The notes under the pieces: model-generated | What the model saw: the letters and a program-made list of their open reading frames with translations, nothing else | What the model was told of the DNA's origin: nothing | The model's database searches: none | DNA from: Sycobia sp. Sy_11 | Taxonomy: Eukaryota > Arthropoda > Insecta > Hymenoptera > Epichrysomallidae | Direction of reading: 5' to 3' | Length of the DNA stretch: 64,000 nt | Assembly (NCBI GenBank): GCA_018907035.1 | Contig: JACCIC010000139.1 | Location: 372,001 to 436,000 of the forward strand | In this document: one piece after another, positions 4,612 to 56,400 of the stretch | Numbering within the stretch: the stretch's first letter is position 1 | How the letters are laid out: each line of letters starts with the position of its first letter | Program-made: the position numbers and the translations under genes

Positions 4612-4669
<58 letters not shown>
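4512..4669. repeat. (TA)n followed by (AC)n microsatellite
   Basis: A TA tract (4512-4560) and an AC tract (4613-4669) are separated by about 50 bp of unique DNA. Confidence 0.96.
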
Positions 4670-4670
<1 letters not shown>

Positions 4671-4696
4671 TTGTGTCGATTTTTATGAATTAAATT

Positions 4697-4800
4697 AATA
4701 AATATTTGTATCGGTCTTACAGAATTTATGCTATAATATATTATTAATATAGTATACTAAAATAATGACAGTCAAACTGTCCTTATTTATGATCACGTCA
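4697..4800 (+). mobile_element. Solo terminal-repeat copy of a MITE family
   Basis: This roughly 100-bp segment matches by eye the arms of the inverted-repeat element at 22311-22790. The shared order is an AATAAATATT start, a TATCGGTC block, a TATAATATATTA core and a GACAGTCAAACTGT block. Only one arm is present, so it is a solo or decayed copy. Related copies occur at 24811-24917 and 55262-55350. Confidence 0.65.
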
Positions 4801-21580: not shown

Positions 21581-24500
21581 TTACGTGCTTCGTGCTCGAC
21601 TAAGTGCAGCCTTCAATGAATCTTTTGCTTCTTGAAATGGATCAACTTCTCTAGTTCGGCTAAGTTTCATTGGTTTTTCAATGAATACTTTTAATGAATC
21701 CTTTGTTTCAGATAGAAAATAATCCCTTTCACAAAACTTTTCTAATGCTTTATAGCAACCTTCCAAATTCCAATTTATTTTAGTAGTACTTTTATCTTCA
21801 CCCTATACATAGTATCAAATATTCAAATGAAAAAACAATTGATAAGTCAAAAAGTGTTAAACAAATATATTAGGTTCAATATGTTAATTAAATTTTAGTA
21901 TATTGTTAATTAAAAAATAATTTGAGAACAATCTATCAAATTTATACTTTTAAAAATGATTTTTTCTGTATATTATATTAATTTTTATACTGCTCAAAAT
22001 AAGATTAGTTAATCAATTAAAAACTTACTTTAAGAAGACCTAGATTGATTAGTAATGCATTATTCACACTGGAAACTTTATTATTGTTTATCGCAAATGT
22101 GAATAATTCTGAATATAAACATTCTGTTACTTGTTCAGCAGAAATTCTAATATCCATATATCCACTTGCACAAAGTGCAGACACTTTCATTATAACTTTT
22201 AAAATGTCATTTATTGAATCTTCATTTTCAAGATTAAACATGCTCTAACAAAATACAAGAAAGTTTAATTAAATTTATATTTATAGCACTAAAATATAAA
22301 TACGTTTCATATAAATATTTTTATTTGTCTTACAGTATTTATACTATAATATATTATAATAATATAGTGGCAGTCAGACTGTCTTTGTTTATAATCACTA
22401 CCACAGAATCTGAAATAGAAATTACTACTAAAAATAAGATTACATTAGATTAAAAACTAAAAATAATAAAAATAAACTATATTCTCCGTTAGCAAAGGAC
22501 CACTTGACTACTCCCATCACTTTAAATTAAAATTTAACTTAGATGTTCGATGTTTTGAACCATTACGGTTCATATTCAAGCACTGAACTTCTTAGTTTTA
22601 TTATTGTTATCATTTCTATTATTTTTATTATTTTAAATTTTTAATCTAATTTACTTTTATTTTTAGTATTTTTAAATTTCTCTTTCGGATTCTTCTGGGG
22701 CAATTATAATCAAGAACAGTTTGACTGTCGTTATATTAGTATAATATATTATAGTATAAAGATTGTAGGACCGATAACAATATTTATTTATTTAATTTAG
22801 AACAGTCAACATAAGTACAATTTTAAATTATTGAAATGAATATTGATTTTAAAATAAACTTACCTTGATGTAATTTGAAAATATTTGTGTCCTATCTCCT
22901 TGTAACAGTAGAAAATTATCTCCCGTGGGTGCTTTTAAGAATTCTTGAATTGTAATAGACTTAACCAGTGGTTTTTCTAGTTTTATTATACTAGTATTTA
23001 CTTCTTCGTTTTCACTATCATCTTCTTCACTCTTAGTTTCATCATTTGTAGTATCGTTTTCTTCTTCACTACTTTCAGGATCATCCTCATCTTCACTCAT
23101 TTGATGAAGATACCTTATTTTACCAGAATTTGCAAGAAGATTAAATAGTATTTTTCTTCCTCTCTCTCCAAATGCATTTCCATTTAAATATAAATATGTA
23201 AGTTGTTTTTTATCAGCTACTGCATTTGCAATAGAACTAGCTGCTCCTATCTTGATTTCATTAAAACTCAAATTGAGTTTACTGAAATAAGGATGATTAT
23301 TTTTAATATTTAAAGCATTAGCTAATAAAACAGCACCACGAGTTTTTAATAAACAATCTCCAAGATTAAGGCACTCAAGATGATAGAAGTTATGTAAAAC
23401 ATTAGCAAGAGCTGCAGCTCCTTTGGGTCCTACTGTATTATCATTCAGATCGAGAACTCTGAGTTGTTTATTTACAGCTAAACCATTAGCTAAAGCAGAT
23501 ATGCCCTCATGATAAATACCATTTTGAGGCATTACTATTTCTTCTAAGCTTGTTAAAGTTTTGAATACTTCAGCTAAAGCAGTAGCACCTTGATTCTCTA
23601 ATCTGTTTCTTCCAGCAATAAAAACTTTTAATGCCAAAGGTTTTTGTGTTTCCTTTAAAGCATTCGAATTGCAGTCAAGTAGAGCTTTGGCAAGAATTTT
23701 TCCACCAGTAATACCCAGACCATTATTGTTGAGCTTTAATTCTTGCAATGTATAACAAGGATTAGAACTTAACAAAGAAGCTAATCCTTGTACACCAATA
23801 GGTCCAAAGGCATTGTCACTCAGATCAAGTATTATTAAATGTGTTTTTGCTGCACACAGTCCTCTTCCAAGGTGTTCTAAAGCAACAGGAATTTCATCCT
23901 TCATTCGCCCTGTAAACATATCCTTCCATAGAGCTCTTTTTAGACTTGTTCCATTTTTTTCTATGGCTTTTGAAATGCCTTTTGCTGCATCTGGTCCAAG
24001 TGTATTTCCTTCAAGGTCCAAATATTCAATGTTTTTACAATTTATAATAGCTTCTTGAACTGGTTTGGCTAAATATACATAAATATTGTTTGTTAATTTT
24101 GATAGCTTTTAAAAATTATTTATAGAAAAAGGAAAAAAGTTTCTATTTATATCTAATAAATCATTATATTAATTATTTATTTTATAATATTGACTAAAAA
24201 TTATATAATTTTTTTTTTAACATTTCATTTGAAGCAGTATATAAATACATGAAAACAAAAATTGTTATATTATTGAAATGCGAAATGTAACTATTGCAAT
24301 GCTAAAACATAATAAACAAATTGAATAGTCAAAATTCAATTAACTATTTTATTATAAATTAGTATATTTAAATCAATACATATAAAAAAAACAGTTTATG
24401 AGGCATTTGTACTCAAGTATTTATCACAAGCAATTTAATGATTTATATGAATCTTCTGTTCATTCATATTTTATTAAGTTTTATTAAAACTGGTTTAAAA

Positions 24501-24685
24501 AATATTGATCAATGGAACATTAAATTTACTTATAATAAAATAAAATAATAACAATTAATTATTTTACCATCATCCTCGGTGTTAAGCTTTAGCGACTTTC
24601 CAGCAAACGAGACGCCCAACCTTGGATTTTTCTGATCAGCAGCATTCAAAGAGTTAACAATTTGATTAAAATTGAAAGATGACAT
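21581..24685 (-). CDS. RanGAP: Ran GTPase-activating protein, full-length copy
   Basis: Four exons on the minus strand: 24568-24685, 22864-24068, 22029-22244 and 21581-21802, giving 1761 nt or 586 aa (human RanGAP1 is 587 aa). Residues about 40-360 form the leucine-rich-repeat GAP domain ([40 protein letters not shown]). An acidic stretch (about 363-400) and a linker follow. Exons 3-4 encode the RanGAP1 C-terminal domain. The exon 3/4 junction reads GLLK|GEDK, matching the vertebrate SUMO-acceptor site LKSE as an LKGE consensus at Lys513. The protein stimulates GTP hydrolysis by Ran on the cytoplasmic side of the nuclear pore and so maintains the transport gradient. Only about 124 bp of upstream DNA is shared with the second copy; beyond that lies the truncated copy's 3' flank. 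Intron 2 carries a MITE. Confidence 0.93.
22311..22790. mobile_element. Inverted-repeat MITE in RanGAP intron 2
   Basis: A left arm at about 22311-22425 and a right arm at about 22680-22790 are imperfect inverted copies of each other. Both contain the ATAAATATT start, a TATAATATATTATA core and a GGCAGTCAGACTGT or GACAGTCAAACTGT block. The total length is about 480 bp and no open reading frame is present, so it is non-autonomous. I could not assign it to a superfamily or define a target duplication. Solo arms of the same family lie elsewhere in the window. Confidence 0.75.
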
Positions 24686-24809
24686 TTTTTAAAGTTTTTC
24701 AATCTCTACAACACTGATATTACAACATAAAGGTTATTTTGAGTTTCTATACAATTATTTGTCATAAAAATACTTTATATGCGTGATCAAACTTATAAAT
24801 GCAAACATT
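22690..24809. repeat. Tandem duplication unit A (RanGAP exons 1-2)
   Basis: This segment and 24810-26928 are direct tandem copies, both beginning TTCTTCTGGGGC and ending in AAATGCAAACA. They include about 124 bp of upstream DNA, exon 1, intron 1, exon 2 and the first part of intron 2. Outside these borders the sequences are unrelated. Confidence 0.95.
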
Positions 24810-24810
24810 C

Positions 24811-24917
24811 TTCTGGGGCGATTTTAAACAAGAATAGTTTGACTGTTGTTATATTAGTATAATATATTATAGTATAAAGATTGTAGGACCGATAATAATA
24901 TTTATTTATTTAATTTA
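24811..24917 (-). mobile_element. Solo MITE arm at the duplication junction
   Basis: Matches the right arm of the element at 22311-22790 and was carried along as the edge of the duplicated unit. The rest of the element is missing here. Confidence 0.75.
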
Positions 24918-24966
24918 GGACAGTCAATATAAGTACAATTGTTAATTATTGAAATGAATATTGATT

Positions 24967-26814
24967 TTAAAATAAACTTACCTTGATGTAATCTGAATAT
25001 TTTTCTGTCCTATCTCCTTGTAACAGTAGAAAATTATCTCCCGTGGGTGCTTTTATGAATTCTTGAATTGCAATAGGCTTAGCCAGTGGTTTTTCTAGTT
25101 TAATTATACTAGTATTTACTTCTTCGTTTTTACTATCATCTTCTTCACTCTTAGTTTCATCATTTGTAGTATCGTCTTCTTCTTCACTACTTTCAGGATC
25201 ATCCTCATCTTCACTCATTTGATGAAGATACCTTATTTTACCAGAATTTGCAAGAAGATTAAATAGTATTTTTCTTCCTCTCTCTCCAAATGCATTTCCA
25301 TTTAAATATAAATATGTAAGTTGTTTTTTATCAGCTACTGCATTTGCAATAGAACTAGCTGCTCCTATCTTGATTTCATTAAAACTCAAATTGAGTTTAC
25401 TGAAATAAGGATGATTGTTTTTAATATTTAAAGCATTAGCTAATAAAACAGCACCACGAGTTTTTAATAAACAATCTCCAAGATTAAGGCACTCAAGATG
25501 ATAGAAGTTATGTAAAACATTAGCAAGAGCTGCAGCTCCTTTGGGTCCTACTGTATTATCATTCAGATCGAGAACTCTGAGTTGTTTATTTACAGCTAAA
25601 CCATTAGCTAAAGCAGATATGCCCTCATGATAAATACCATTTTGAGGCATTACTATTTCTTCTAAGCTTGTTAAAGTTTTGAATACTTCAGCTAAAGCAG
25701 TAGCACCTTGATTCTCTAATCTGTTTCTTCCAGCAATAAAAACTTTTAATGCCAAAGGTTTTTGTGTTTCCTTTAAAGCGTTCGAATTGCAGTCAAGTAG
25801 TGCTTTGGCAAGAATTTTTCCACCAGTAATACCCAGACCATTATTGTTGAGCTTTAATTCTTGCAATGTATAACAAGGATTAGAACTTAACAAAGAAGCT
25901 AATCCTTGTACACCAATAGGTCCAAAGGCATTGTCACTCAGATCAAGTATTATTAAATGTGTTTTTGCTGCACACAGACCTCTTCCAAGGTGTTCTAAAG
26001 CAACAGGAATTTCATCCTTCATTCGCCCTGTAAACATATCCTTCCATAGAGCTCTTTTTAAACTTGTTCCATTTTTTTCTATGGCTTTTGAAATGCCTTT
26101 TGCTGCATCTGGTCCAAGTGTATTTCCTTCAAGGTCCAAATATTCAATGTTTTTACAATTTATAATAGCTTCTTGAACTGGTTTTGCTAAATATACATAA
26201 ATATTGTTTGTTAATTTTGATAGCTTTTAAAAATCATTTATAGAAAAAGGAAAAAAGTTTCTATTTATATCTAATAAATCATTATATTAATTATTTATTT
26301 TATAATATTGACTAAAAATTATATAAATTTTTTTTTGTATAATTAAAATTAAAATAAAAGAAGCAGTATATAAATACATGAAAACAAAAATTGTTATATT
26401 ATTGAAATGCGAAATGTAACTATTGCAATGCTAAAACATAATAAACAAATTGAATAGTCAAAATTCAATTAACTATTTTATTATAAATTAGTATATTTAA
26501 ATCAATACATATAAAAAAAACAGTTTATGAGGCATTTGTACTCAAGTATTTATTACAAGCAATTTAATGATTTATATGAATCTTCTGTTCATTCATATTT
26601 TATTAAGTTTTATTAAAACTGGTTTAAAAAATATTGATCAATGGAACATTAAATTTACTTTTAATAAAATAAAATAATAACAATTAATTATTTTACCATC
26701 ATCCTCGGTGTTAAACTTTAGCGACTTTCCAGCAAACGAGACCCCCAACCCTGCATTTTTCTGATCAGCATCATTCAAAGAGTTAACAATTTTATTAAAA
26801 TTGAAAGATGACAT
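24967..26814 (-). CDS. RanGAP, 3'-truncated tandem copy
   Basis: Two exons on the minus strand: 26697-26814 and 24982-26186, identical in length and phase to exons 1-2 of the full-length gene and encoding 441 residues. No homologue of exons 3-4 lies before the next gene starts. If intron 2 is not spliced, translation continues for four codons (VSLF) to a stop at 24967, giving about 445 aa. An AATAAA run near 24905 on this strand could end the transcript. The leucine-rich-repeat GAP domain is complete and identical in protein sequence to the other copy. The C-terminal domain and the LKGE SUMO-type site are absent. The donor at the end of exon 2 is intact, so splicing into exons 3-4 of the downstream copy is an alternative. 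This copy lies nearest the shared RanGAP/UTP20 upstream region and so probably keeps the ancestral promoter. It could be functional, a drive-type gene, or a neutral fragment. Confidence 0.85.
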
Positions 26815-27877
26815 TTTTTAAATAATTCAACACTGATATTACAACATAAAGTTTATTTTGAGTTTCTATACAATTATTTGTCATAAAAATACTTTATATG
26901 CGTGATTAAACTTATAAATGCAAACAAAGCGCTGTAATGGCGATACACAATATGAATTGTGGCCAGAGATGCCGGCTGAACGGCCAACTCGAGTATGCGC
27001 ATTAGAGTCTTTACCCCTCCACGTGCTGATTGGCTGAAACTCGCGCGATATTTTAAAGTTATATGGTCTGTATGATCGTATAAAACAATAAGCAAGCTGC
27101 AAGACTATTAAAAAAATTATTGATACTATAATATATAACTGTGGCCACATGCATATAAATATTTTACAACATGTTCACTACTAAAAACTCATTAATTAAT
27201 ATTATTAATTATTAAAATTATTATTAATTATGAATATTAAGATTAATATTATTATAAACTATTATAATAATTATTAAATTATATAATTAATAATAATTGT
27301 AATAATTAATAATATTAATTAATGAGTTTTTAGTAGTGGACATATTGTAAAATATTTATATGCATATGGCCACAGTTATATATTATAGTATCAATAATTT
27401 TTTTAATAGCCTTGCAGCTTGCTTATTGTTTTATACGATCATACAGATCATATAACTTTAAAATATCGCGCGAGTTTCAGCCAATCAGCACGTGGAGGGG
27501 TAAAGACTCTAATGCGCATACTCGACTCGAGTTGGCCGTTTAGCCTCGCATCTCTGATTGTGGCAGGGCAGCACGTCCACGAGGCACAGCGGTTACGCGG
27601 GAAAGCAGAGATAAATTGTCAGCAGCTGTCAATGTGTGTTTTCTAATCATAAAGATGGTCTTCTCTGGTCTTATTTTGGTTACTGACCAGCACTAACAAA
27701 AGCACGTGCACAGTGTCTGGTGCACATGTTCTTTCATTTCCTACTGTCTTCTGAACTTACAATAAGGGTTTAGTTGGTTCTAAGCATTTGTTATTCAACA
27801 GTTGTTTATAAATGGAAATGTAGCAAAATAATTGATTATTTGAAGTTTACATATTTAACCAAAATTTCATTTTGAAA
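26815..27877. promoter_or_regulatory. Bidirectional upstream region of RanGAP (truncated copy) and UTP20
   Basis: About 1.06 kb separates the start codons of two divergently transcribed housekeeping genes. More than half of it is occupied by a hAT-type fold-back element. A GC-richer, CG-containing stretch at about 27565-27650, between the element and the UTP20 start, is the likeliest core promoter area. The assignment is by position only. Confidence 0.5.
26964..27556. mobile_element. Non-autonomous hAT-type fold-back element (MITE)
   Basis: A 593-bp element starting CAGAGATGC and ending GCATCTCTG. It is flanked on both sides by the same 8 bp, ATTGTGGC (26956-26963 and 27557-27564). An 8-bp target duplication with CAG-type termini is the hAT hallmark. 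The arms are about 240 bp each, highly similar inverted copies, around an AT-rich centre (about 27190-27310) made of AATTAT/TTAATA runs. No transposase frame is present. The whole element could fold into one long hairpin. Confidence 0.9.
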
Positions 27878-45264
<17,387 letters not shown>

Positions 45265-53400: not shown

Positions 53401-56400
53401 TATTTAGGTTTAGCGTCAATAACATTAATTCGTATCAGAATTGATCTTAAAATATATTATGTATTTTTATGGAGGTATAACTATGAATGATGGCGAAGAT
53501 TGGCAAATTGTCCGCAATTGGTTCGTGCGAAAGATGAAATCTGTTGGATTTTCGCGTCGCGAAATGTCTGAATTCATCAAGGAAGAGTTGTCAGAAATTC
53601 TTGACAATATTAAAGATGGTGGAATTAGAAAAATGAAACCTATTATCGTTCCAACTACCATTAACGTTCTCTGGACACTTGCTACTGGACAGAAATTTAA
53701 AGCAGATAGGTGTGTATATCCGAAACTGAACTTATTTGCAATTTATGAATAATAAGTTGGTTTATTATTTTTATATTAAAGAATCTAATTATAAAATGTT
53801 ACTTTTTTTAACAATAGTGCTTTTGTATAGGCCACTAAACAAAGACATATAGTTACAAATTACAATGTAAGGTAACACTATTTTATAATTCCTATGTGGG
53901 AAAATATAGGAATAATTGAATTGAAAAAATTACAATTACTAGAGATCATAACATTATCCTTTAAAGCGCGAGGGTTTAGAAACAATTTTGAAATCGCATT
54001 TTACTATAGAAATGCGGTGTAAAGTCTAGTATAATTTCGGGCCAAACGTTAAGGCCCGAGTGAAAATTTTGAATTGCAATATTTTTTCTTGTTGTTTTGA
54101 GCATTATTTATGTTTTGTTTGGTGAAATAAAGTTACTTTGTATCATTATTGTTTGGCAAACATTATAGACTTCATTATAGGTTTGAAAATTAAAAATTGT
54201 ACTTATGTCGACTGTTATAAATTTTTCACCACTACGCTTGAGTAATTAATAAATTTTTCACCATTACACTTCAGTTTTCAAGCAATTCAGATGAAAATTA
54301 CAAGTAAAATTTTTTTACGTCTCTAAGCGTTTTCCATCCTTTAAAGGTCCAAATAATTCAAAAGAAATACACTGTTTATATAACGCAAGATTTTGTTTTA
54401 TGTTTTTATTTTCATGCAGATTACAGTACTTTGTCGACTTAATGACTAGACGAGCACAGGCCTTTGACATGACTGGCGGTACTCTTTCTGCTTTTCCGTG
54501 GATCCGTCACATTGCGCCGACGTATTCAGGCTTTACATTACTCGTCACCCTGAACAATGAATTCAGAGCAATTCTTGTCGTATGTATAAATTAAACATCA
54601 TATCTAGTAAATGAGTATTGAATATATCTTGTTTCATTCAACACTTAAATATTTTGTTTTAGGAAACTATCGAAGAGCATAAAAAGAATTATATGCAAGG
54701 ATGCGAGTCTGATCTTATTGACATGTTTCTCACCGAGATGTACAGAGGAAAAGAATCAGAAGCGATCTTCGATGGTATGGAACTTAATTGTTCGAATTAT
54801 TTCTCATATGAAAGCTTGTAGATCTAAAGGGCTATTTTATACTGGTTTCAAACCATGAATATTTAAAAAACTGCTGGTTATTCTTACGGTTAAATGAAAA
54901 TATAAAATTCCTTTTATAAGTTCATAGAAGAAAAAGTTTCAGATTAGTATAGTATTTAAAAAATTTAAGATTAGTATAGTTTCAATGAATGGTGTGACCT
55001 AGACGTAAAAGTTCAACGCCATTTTAATATCAAATCGATTATTTTTCAAATGGAAATTCGAACATTTGATCGCTGAAATAATAACAGGCGAAATTTGGTA
55101 TAGTCGAGGGCATGGTGAAGTTCGAAATTCACTAACGTATCTAAATATTTCGAAAACTATTTATCCTTGAAAGACTGTATAATATAATGGCAGAAGCGTT
55201 AAGAGGTGGGCAGTTAATGCTACTCTCAACTTTAAGTTGGTGGTTCAAGTTATTAAAGGCTAAATTACAGTTTGACTGTGATTATAATTGAATAGTATAT
55301 TATTATATTAAGACTCTAAAACCGATAAAAATATTTAATAATTTATTTAAATATTTATTTTCTTCTTATTTTTTAAATAAAAATTCTTATTCCTGACTTT
55401 ACATTTTGTAGTCGAAGATAAATAACATGAAATTTTATGATTTTTGAGATTCAAGAAAACTTAAGATGGATCAAAATTTTTGTTATTAGAATGTTAGCTG
55501 AGCTTGAGTTTAAAATTTGTGTTGACTTGTTTTTATGATATAGCAATATCAATGTGCAAGTTTTATAATGTGGATTATAACAATTTTATTTTAGAGGATC
55601 AATTAATCATGATACTTGTTGATATTCTTCTGGCTGGTCTCAATATTACAACAACGACACTGGAATTTTTGTTCTTAAATATGCTAATCCATCAGGATTC
55701 GCAGCGTTTGCTTCACGAAGAAATTGATCGTATTATAGGGCTGGAAAAACTGCCAGACATGAGCGATAAGTCGAAGTAACTATTTTTTATTACTATCGTT
55801 TTTATTACTATTCCAACCGTTCGAAAAAGCTGGTTATATATAAGCATTAATAAAGTTCATTAAAAGAAGCTGCTAGGAAATTCCATTCCAAAGCGCTAGC
55901 CTAATTTATATTATTTAATTACATTACAGGATGCCGTATGTCCAAGCAGTGATAATGGAAAGTCAGCGAATGACGCCAGTCGTGCCAATTATCGGGCCCC
56001 GGCGTGTACTACGTGACACCCGCTTAAAGGACTACGACATTCCACGTAACAGCGTCGTTATTTTAAATCTACACTCTATTCACGCTGATCCAAATTTATA
56101 CCCGAACCCCGAAGTTTTTAAGCCAGAGCGCTTTATCAAGGACGGCGTGTGTATTCATGATGATAATCTACTTTCCTTTGGAAAAGGTGAGTTGAGTAGT
56201 TATAAAATAAGCGTTTATAATTACTAAAACATACGAAGTTGTATGAGAAATCATATATATTGCATCTACTACTATGCATGAGCTTTGAACTATTTTTGTT
56301 CAACTTGAAAGGAGTAAATGCTTTTCTTATGGACATAAAATTAGGAAAAATTAATTTTTAGTTTTCACAGCTCTACATAAACATATGTACTGTCTGTATT

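What the first reader, a model, noticed from the sequence alone, without database searches (positions are those of the whole stretch)
21581..26928. Truncated tandem RanGAP duplicate resembling the Drosophila Segregation Distorter gene
Seen: a roughly 2.12-kb unit holding RanGAP promoter-proximal DNA, exon 1 and exon 2 is duplicated in tandem, while exons 3-4 exist once. One copy encodes 586 aa; the other encodes an intact leucine-rich-repeat GAP domain and then stops after about 445 aa. Known: in Drosophila melanogaster the meiotic driver Sd-RanGAP is a tandem, C-terminally truncated RanGAP duplicate that keeps GAP activity and mislocalises. Inference: an independent event of the same architecture has arisen in this insect. 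It could be a selfish element, a localisation variant, or a neutral fragment.
Basis: partly seen in the sequence, partly recalled or inferred. Interest (0 to 1): 0.92.

Follow-up and report, generated by a model that had tools for sequence, protein, structure and literature searches.

The report
Partial RanGAP duplication in chalcid wasp
A wasp's genome assembly shows a second copy of the first half of the RanGAP gene right in front of the complete one; it looks like the fruit-fly "Segregation Distorter" at first sight, but it is older, partly kept alike by gene conversion, need not make a shortened protein, and sits in a group of insects whose males are normally haploid.

Summary
The tandem duplication is there in this assembly: 22689-24806 and 24807-26926 are 97% identical over about 2.12 kb, same strand, holding RanGAP exons 1-2; exons 3-4 occur once. 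(1) The 445-aa 'truncated' protein is intron read-through: both copies have the identical exon-2 donor CAAG|GTAAGT, and the full copy gives a 445-aa stop too if its donor is ignored. The upstream copy can splice in frame to exons 3-4 and give 586 aa. (2) Differences are clustered at the unit's two ends, as gene conversion of the middle would leave; Sd-RanGAP is young and unconverted. (3) In the GAP core the copies differ by 0 replacement and 6 silent changes, at the ends by 15 and 2. (4) The host groups inside chalcid wasps; hymenopteran males are normally haploid, so Sd-type sperm killing in heterozygous males has no ordinary setting. Best reading: one RanGAP locus with two alternative 5' exon cassettes, at most a minor GAP-only isoform. 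Gene models with the GAP region twice also occur in a bee, two nematodes and an ostracod. No RNA, reads or relative's DNA were available.

The parts
24807..26926 (-). Unit B: upstream copy (exon 1, intron 1, exon 2, start of intron 2, about 112 bp 5' flank), on the native promoter side
22689..24806 (-). Unit A: downstream copy, continuous with exons 3-4
26697..26814 (-). RanGAP exon 1 of copy B (coding, 118 nt)
24982..26186 (-). RanGAP exon 2 of copy B (1205 nt, LRR/GAP domain); donor CAAG|GTAAGT intact at its 3' end
24568..24685 (-). RanGAP exon 1 of copy A
22864..24068 (-). RanGAP exon 2 of copy A
22029..22244 (-). RanGAP exon 3, single copy (part of the RanGAP1_C domain)
21581..21802 (-). 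RanGAP exon 4, single copy, ends in TAA
24967..24981 (-). Intron-2 bases of copy B that give VSLF and the stop in the read-through
24806..24807 (.). Tandem junction, 1 nt (A) shared between the two parental flanks
22311..22787 (.). Inverted-repeat element in intron 2; the proximal duplication breakpoint (22689) lies in its right arm; related pieces at 4688-4793 and 55267-55348
26964..27556 (.). 593-bp near-perfect palindrome, CAGAGATG...CATCTCTG ends, 8-bp direct repeats ATTGTGGC on both sides (hAT-type MITE by these marks, a rule I recall); 37 bp from the distal duplication breakpoint, between RanGAP-B and UTP20

Best explanation
A 5'-partial tandem duplication of RanGAP in a chalcid wasp. 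It has left one locus with two 5' exon cassettes (exon 1 + GAP exon 2) in front of a single 3' end. Shown: the duplication in this assembly, intact splice sites and reading frames in both cassettes, a nearly identical middle with more diverged ends, and no replacement difference in the GAP core. Inferred: transcription starts at the native promoter beside cassette B and/or in the duplicated 112-121 bp in front of cassette A; splicing joins e1B-e2A-e3-e4, e1B-e2B-e3-e4 or e1A-e2A-e3-e4, each of which gives a 586-aa RanGAP; gene conversion keeps the GAP exons alike; truncated products (445 aa by intron retention, 449 aa by e2B-e2A splicing, the latter a likely NMD target) are minor. Its effect is redundancy or dosage, not drive.
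For: Donors of e2A and e2B identical. Three cassette combinations give 586 aa in frame; e2B-to-e2A goes out of frame and stops after 8 residues. Reading past this exon boundary is what open-reading-frame calls do: of the 120 proteins listed, I looked at the ends of seven short unnamed ones (P0076, P0085-P0089, P0113; 391-438 aa), and all 7 stop 2 to 7 residues past the same boundary, the first added residue being V, as a GT donor read on would give. Uneven divergence: 51 substitutions fall 16,5,1,2,2,12,2,11 over eight bins; nine of the 12 are one complex indel cluster; 0 of 5000 random placements were as uneven, whether or not the clusters are dropped; longest identical run 362 bp. Non-coding comparison, with that cluster dropped: 15/296 at the ends against 4/499 in intron 1, Fisher p 0.0003. 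GAP core codons 40-376: 0 replacement, 6 silent; P 0.005 if B were unconstrained and A fixed only silent changes; against the ends (15:2) Fisher p 0.0003.
Against: No transcript evidence of any kind. The non-coding comparison weakens to p 0.08 if the cluster's nine mismatches are counted as nine events, and is p 0.003 if a second cluster upstream is dropped too. The longest-gap test alone is 69 of 5000. The selection argument rests on 6 and 17 changes, and gene conversion lets selection on A clean up B. Two AATAAA and one ATTAAA lie 68-76 nt after the B donor, so premature polyadenylation and a GAP-only product are possible, although the same signals stand in copy A's intron 2. In codons 377-441 copy B departs more from the family than A (summed mean BLOSUM difference 8.4 in A's favour, sign-flip p 0.11 with the hymenopteran set; 13.2 and p 0.048 with chalcids only), which a truncated B, freed from its C-terminal domain, would also explain.
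Confidence: 0.5

Rival explanations
1. Copy B is a separate, stably expressed GAP-only RanGAP (about 441-449 aa, without most of the RanGAP1_C domain), kept for an extra or differently placed GAP activity in soma or germ line, without any drive.
For: GAP core under apparent constraint (0 replacement: 6 silent); residues matching Rna1 R74 and N131 present in B (their catalytic role is recalled); B's stub deviates at conserved C-domain positions T412A, L417I, Q434E, F436Y; poly(A)-like signals after the donor.
Against: The donor is intact and identical to A's; the poly(A)-like signals are not new, A's intron 2 has them too; the asymmetry of the stub is marginal.
Confidence: 0.22
2. Neutral relic: the inner parts (end of e2B, junction, e1A) are decaying and the middle is only kept alike by recent gene conversion.
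For: The ends' replacement share is compatible with no constraint (15 of 17, P 0.16 against neutral). A fits the family better at the end of exon 2, B better in exon 1, as if the two inner ends were free (sign-flip p 0.09 with the hymenopteran set, 0.052 with chalcids only).
Against: No stop or frame shift in the coding part of either cassette; core 0:6 (P 0.005 if B were neutral).
Confidence: 0.16
3. Assembly artefact: two alleles laid in tandem.
For: Not excluded: no reads are held, one assembly was seen, and the own-genome search did not complete.
Against: No N in the window; breakpoints inside a repeat arm and beside a palindrome, with 1 nt shared; clustered divergence with two complex indels does not look like a plain allele pair; no other direct repeat over 150 bp by the same megablast.
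Confidence: 0.08
4. Sd-like selfish element: truncated RanGAP that mislocalises and biases transmission.
For: Same outline as Sd: partial tandem duplicate, 5' of the parent, GAP domain intact (PMC2668186, PMC7214746, passages). Drive in a haplodiploid's female germ line is thinkable: a passage of PMC11797023 reports likely meiotic drive of the fire-ant Sb supergene in eggs, and abundant diploid males in that ant.
Against: Host inside chalcids; hymenopteran males normally haploid, without homologous pairs (PMC6704150 abstract and passages); truncation unproven; no clear RanGAP-specific acceleration; signs of conversion between copies, unlike Sd.
Confidence: 0.03

Closest known systems
Sd-RanGAP, Segregation Distorter of Drosophila melanogaster
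   Same: Tandem, same-strand, 3'-incomplete RanGAP duplicate placed 5' of the complete gene; GAP domain kept; C-terminal part outside the duplicated unit.
   Different: Sd: about 5-kb unit, Hs2st in intron 1, K_sil 0.0027 between copies, no evidence of recent conversion, about 2% of second chromosomes, product lacks 234 aa and is expressed in testis (PMC2668186 and PMC7214746, passages). Here: 2.12-kb unit, about 6% in the intron-2 piece and 5% in exon 1, a nearly identical middle, breakpoint in an intron after an intact donor, product unknown, host in a haplodiploid order.
Habropoda laboriosa RanGAP gene model, 978 aa (P0001)
   Same: A hymenopteran RanGAP with two head-to-tail GAP domains before one C-terminal domain; the copies are 82% identical over 367 aa and group together, apart from Anthophora.
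   Different: Annotated as one fused protein; longer branch of the first copy (0.26 against 0.065). Taken as a separate event because its two copies are sisters in the tree, though conversion within a locus would also make copies look like sisters.
RanGAP-like models in Ancylostoma (P0098), Nippostrongylus (P0111) and Darwinula (P0081)
   Same: The GAP region matched twice in one protein.
   Different: Distant hosts; gene models only; not examined further.

Membership tests
Sd-RanGAP driver | Partial tandem duplicate of RanGAP, same strand, 5' of the complete copy | tested here: met
   layout of Sd from the primer description in PMC2668186 (passage)
Sd-RanGAP driver | Descends from the same duplication event | tested here: not met
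   Sd arose within D. melanogaster (PMC2668186 passage); here A and B (residues 1-376) are each other's closest relatives inside chalcids
Sd-RanGAP driver | GAP domain with catalytic residues intact | tested here: met
   B aligned to Rna1 (1k5d_C), R74 and N131 positions conserved; their role is recalled
Sd-RanGAP driver | A C-terminally truncated protein is made | tested here: inconclusive
   truncated and full-length products both possible; donor intact; no RNA
Sd-RanGAP driver | Nuclear mislocalisation with GAP activity | not testable with these tools
   needs protein work
Sd-RanGAP driver | Distortion in heterozygous males, with a target such as Responder | not testable with these tools
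   no crosses; host placed in chalcids, in an order whose males develop as haploids (PMC6704150), which argues against it
Tandem duplicates homogenised by gene conversion | Divergence clustered at unit ends with a nearly identical interior | tested here: met
   0 of 5000 placements as uneven with 51, 42 or 39 substitutions; non-coding ends against intron 1 p 0.08, 0.0003 and 0.003 for the same three counts

The most novel reading that the evidence does not exclude
A convergent, stably kept GAP-only RanGAP has arisen in a haplodiploid wasp and acts in the diploid female germ line or in the early embryo by weakening the Ran gradient, i.e. an Sd-like molecule working outside male meiosis.
Probability: 0.05. 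Interest if true: 0.8.

Novelty: new member of a known kind. Interest (0 to 1): 0.33.

Why it matters
If copy B does give a GAP-only protein in a species whose males are haploid, it would separate what a truncated RanGAP does for the cell from what it does for drive. If not, the locus is an example of how a Segregation-Distorter-shaped duplication can arise and persist without being a driver, which matters for anyone who screens genomes for drivers by architecture. Gene models with the GAP region twice in a bee, two nematodes and an ostracod (4 of 120 listed proteins) hint that partial RanGAP duplication recurs.

Tried and rejected
Positive selection on the ends: 15 replacement: 2 silent is within neutral expectation (P 0.16), so not claimed. 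RanGAP-specific acceleration: RanGAP core d(query)/d(Nasonia) is 1.18-1.35 over six outgroups and UTP20 1.01-1.13 with Trichomalopsis standing in for Nasonia, so RanGAP is higher with each of the six; against Phymastichus 1.01-1.15 and 1.00-1.08. Tajima-type unique changes (query: other) are 10:3 (p 0.09), 9:9 and 5:3 for RanGAP against Nasonia, Phymastichus and Eretmocerus, and 57:36 (p 0.04), 62:44 (p 0.10) and 59:46 (p 0.24) for UTP20 (296 and 1564 ungapped columns). A mild RanGAP excess is not excluded; an arms-race rate is not shown, and the long RanGAP stem in the tree (0.41) is not clearly gene-specific. Polarising the 15 replacement differences, by my reading: B looks derived at 34, 392, 412, 417, 434, 436; A at 15, 22, 377, 438; 8, 21, 408, 410, 435 unresolved; the best named outgroup is 71% identical, so this is weak. 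Venom recruitment (RhoGAP proteins in parasitoid venom; listing, the rest recalled): B's N-terminus, by eye, shows no hydrophobic signal-like stretch; no predictor was run. Own-genome search for further copies: unanswered seven times. Structure prediction was not used. Literature: RanGAP + duplicat + Hymenoptera gave 2 papers, neither on this by title; RanGAP + tandem duplication + paralog + independent gave 12 papers, 11 listed, seen as a listing; one search gave 22, 15 listed. PMC8645118 (51 insect genomes) was searched for passages; its main text does not hold the words Hymenoptera or Nasonia. Searches were searches on haplodiploid drive, seen as listings; PMC11797023, PMC11333046 and PMC6704150 were then searched for passages. 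A search for the length of the Sd truncation found no paper; it was taken from a passage of PMC7214746.
Full report
What is there. On the minus strand of the window lies a RanGAP gene. Its best hit by score is a fused bee model (Habropoda, 55%); next comes Nasonia vitripennis RanGAP1, 71% over the whole length. Pfam's RanGAP1_C matches residues 393-580. A 2.12-kb segment is present twice, head to tail: 22689-24806 (A) and 24807-26926 (B), 97.0% identical over 2130 columns; it is the only direct self-match over 150 bp that a megablast with 20-base words finds in the 64 kb. Each unit holds 112 (B) or 121 (A) bp 5' of the ATG, exon 1 (118 nt), intron 1, exon 2 (1205 nt) and 175 bp of intron 2. 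Exons 3 and 4 are single in the window. A joined to exons 3-4 gives 586 aa. The two parental flanks share 1 nt at the junction, so recombination between long repeats did not make it.

The 445-aa protein comes from reading on past CAAG|GTAAGT. That donor is the same in A and B, and A read on in the same way also gives 445 aa ending VSLF. Seven short unnamed RanGAP ORFs of the list (P0076, P0085-P0089, P0113), six of which group in the chalcid clade (P0113 was not in the tree), end 2 to 7 residues past the same boundary, each starting with V: such ends are what a stop-to-stop reading of this exon gives. From the exon phases, e1B-e2B-e3-e4 and e1B-e2A-e3-e4 are both in frame and give 586 aa; e1B-e2B-e2A shifts frame and stops after 8 residues (449 aa). 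Thus the DNA allows at least three full-length and two truncated outcomes. Nothing in hand says which is used.

How the copies have evolved. The 51 substitutions fall 16, 5, 1, 2, 2, 12, 2, 11 over eight equal bins; nine of the 12 belong to one complex indel (24218-24230) and three of the last 11 stand beside a 10-bp indel. With none, the first, or both clusters dropped (51, 42, 39 substitutions), 0 of 5000 random placements was as uneven; the longest-gap test is weaker, 69 of 5000. Non-coding ends against intron 1: 15/296 to 13/499 with nothing dropped (p 0.08), 15/296 to 4/499 with the first cluster dropped (p 0.0003), 12/296 to 4/499 with both dropped (p 0.003). The longest shared run is 362 bp, in exon 2. 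I read this as gene conversion in the middle of an older duplicate. In coding sequence, exon 1 and codons 377-441 carry 15 replacement and 2 silent differences, codons 40-376 none and 6. The latter has P 0.005 if copy B were unconstrained and A accepted silent changes only; the former is compatible with no constraint. Both rest on few changes.

Which end is the old promoter. UTP20 lies head to head on the plus strand; its first exon seems to start at 27878 (by eye; position). Its joined pieces match UTP20 proteins, best Trichomalopsis 65%, and two exons hit Pfam UTP20_N. B therefore has the likely ancestral upstream neighbour, while A has only the duplicated 121 bp before B's intron remnant. 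As in Sd, the 3'-incomplete copy is the upstream one (primer layout, PMC2668186).

How it may have arisen. The proximal breakpoint (22689) lies in the arm of an inverted-repeat element (22311-22787) with relatives at 4688-4793 and 55267-55348. The distal breakpoint (26926) lies 37 bp from a 593-bp palindrome, 26964-27556, with 8-bp direct repeats ATTGTGGC at both sides and CAGAGATG/CATCTCTG ends, by recalled rules a hAT-type MITE. Both can form hairpins; breakage or template switching there is an inference.

Host. In a tree of 26 rows, A and B (residues 1-376) fall in a 13-row clade with Nasonia, Eretmocerus, Phymastichus, two Trichogramma and six unnamed rows at 100/100, and UTP20's five best hits are Trichomalopsis, Ceratosolen, Eretmocerus, Phymastichus and Copidosoma; that these are chalcids is recalled. 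The species itself was not found. Hymenopteran males develop from unfertilised eggs and make sperm without homologous pairs (PMC6704150, abstract and passages). Sd acts in SD/SD+ males; the like is not expected in haploid males. Against a flat exclusion: PMC11797023 (passages) reports abundant diploid males in invasive fire ants, there called effectively sterile, and likely meiotic drive of a supergene in fire-ant eggs, so diploid males and female-side drive do occur in the order.

Function. My best reading is a RanGAP locus with two interchangeable 5' cassettes giving normal RanGAP, with conversion keeping the GAP exon alike (0.5). A real GAP-only copy is the main rival (0.22), then a decaying relic (0.16), artefact (0.08) and an Sd-like driver (0.03). 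Fit to the family is mixed: A is closer at the end of exon 2, B in exon 1, with sign-flip p 0.09 (hymenopteran set) or 0.052 (chalcids) for the contrast, which would suit decay of the two inner ends but is marginal.

Comparison. Against Sd (passages of PMC2668186, PMC7214746, PMC7263674): same outline, different event, different age (K_sil 0.0027 there; here 10/175 in the intron-2 piece and 6/118 in exon 1), no evidence of recent conversion there, signs of it here, a truncated testis product there, unknown product here. Of the 120 proteins listed, four match the GAP region twice (P0001, P0081, P0098, P0111). Habropoda's two copies are 82% identical and sisters in the tree, which suggests its own event, though conversion could mimic that.

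Noticed in passing
26964-27556: 593-bp near-perfect palindrome with 8-bp target-site-like repeats in the shared RanGAP/UTP20 upstream region; hAT-type MITE by its ends (recalled rule).
   Followed up: partly
22311-22787, 4688-4793, 55267-55348: Dispersed inverted-repeat element; one copy in RanGAP intron 2 carries the duplication breakpoint.
   Followed up: partly
P0001 (Habropoda laboriosa, 978 aa): Bee RanGAP model with two GAP domains before one C-terminal domain: a partial tandem duplication or its fused annotation.
   Followed up: partly
P0098, P0111, P0081: RanGAP-like models with the GAP region twice in two nematodes and an ostracod.
   Followed up: no
24218-24230 against 26337-26359: Complex 11-bp indel plus nine mismatches in an otherwise nearly identical intron 1; perhaps a local event after the last conversion.
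   Followed up: no
44446-44567 and 4614-4669: Long GT/CA-type dinucleotide runs.
   Followed up: no
window 21581-28700: RanGAP and UTP20 lie head to head here and share a listed contig length in Phymastichus and Eretmocerus, so probably neighbours there too.
   Followed up: partly
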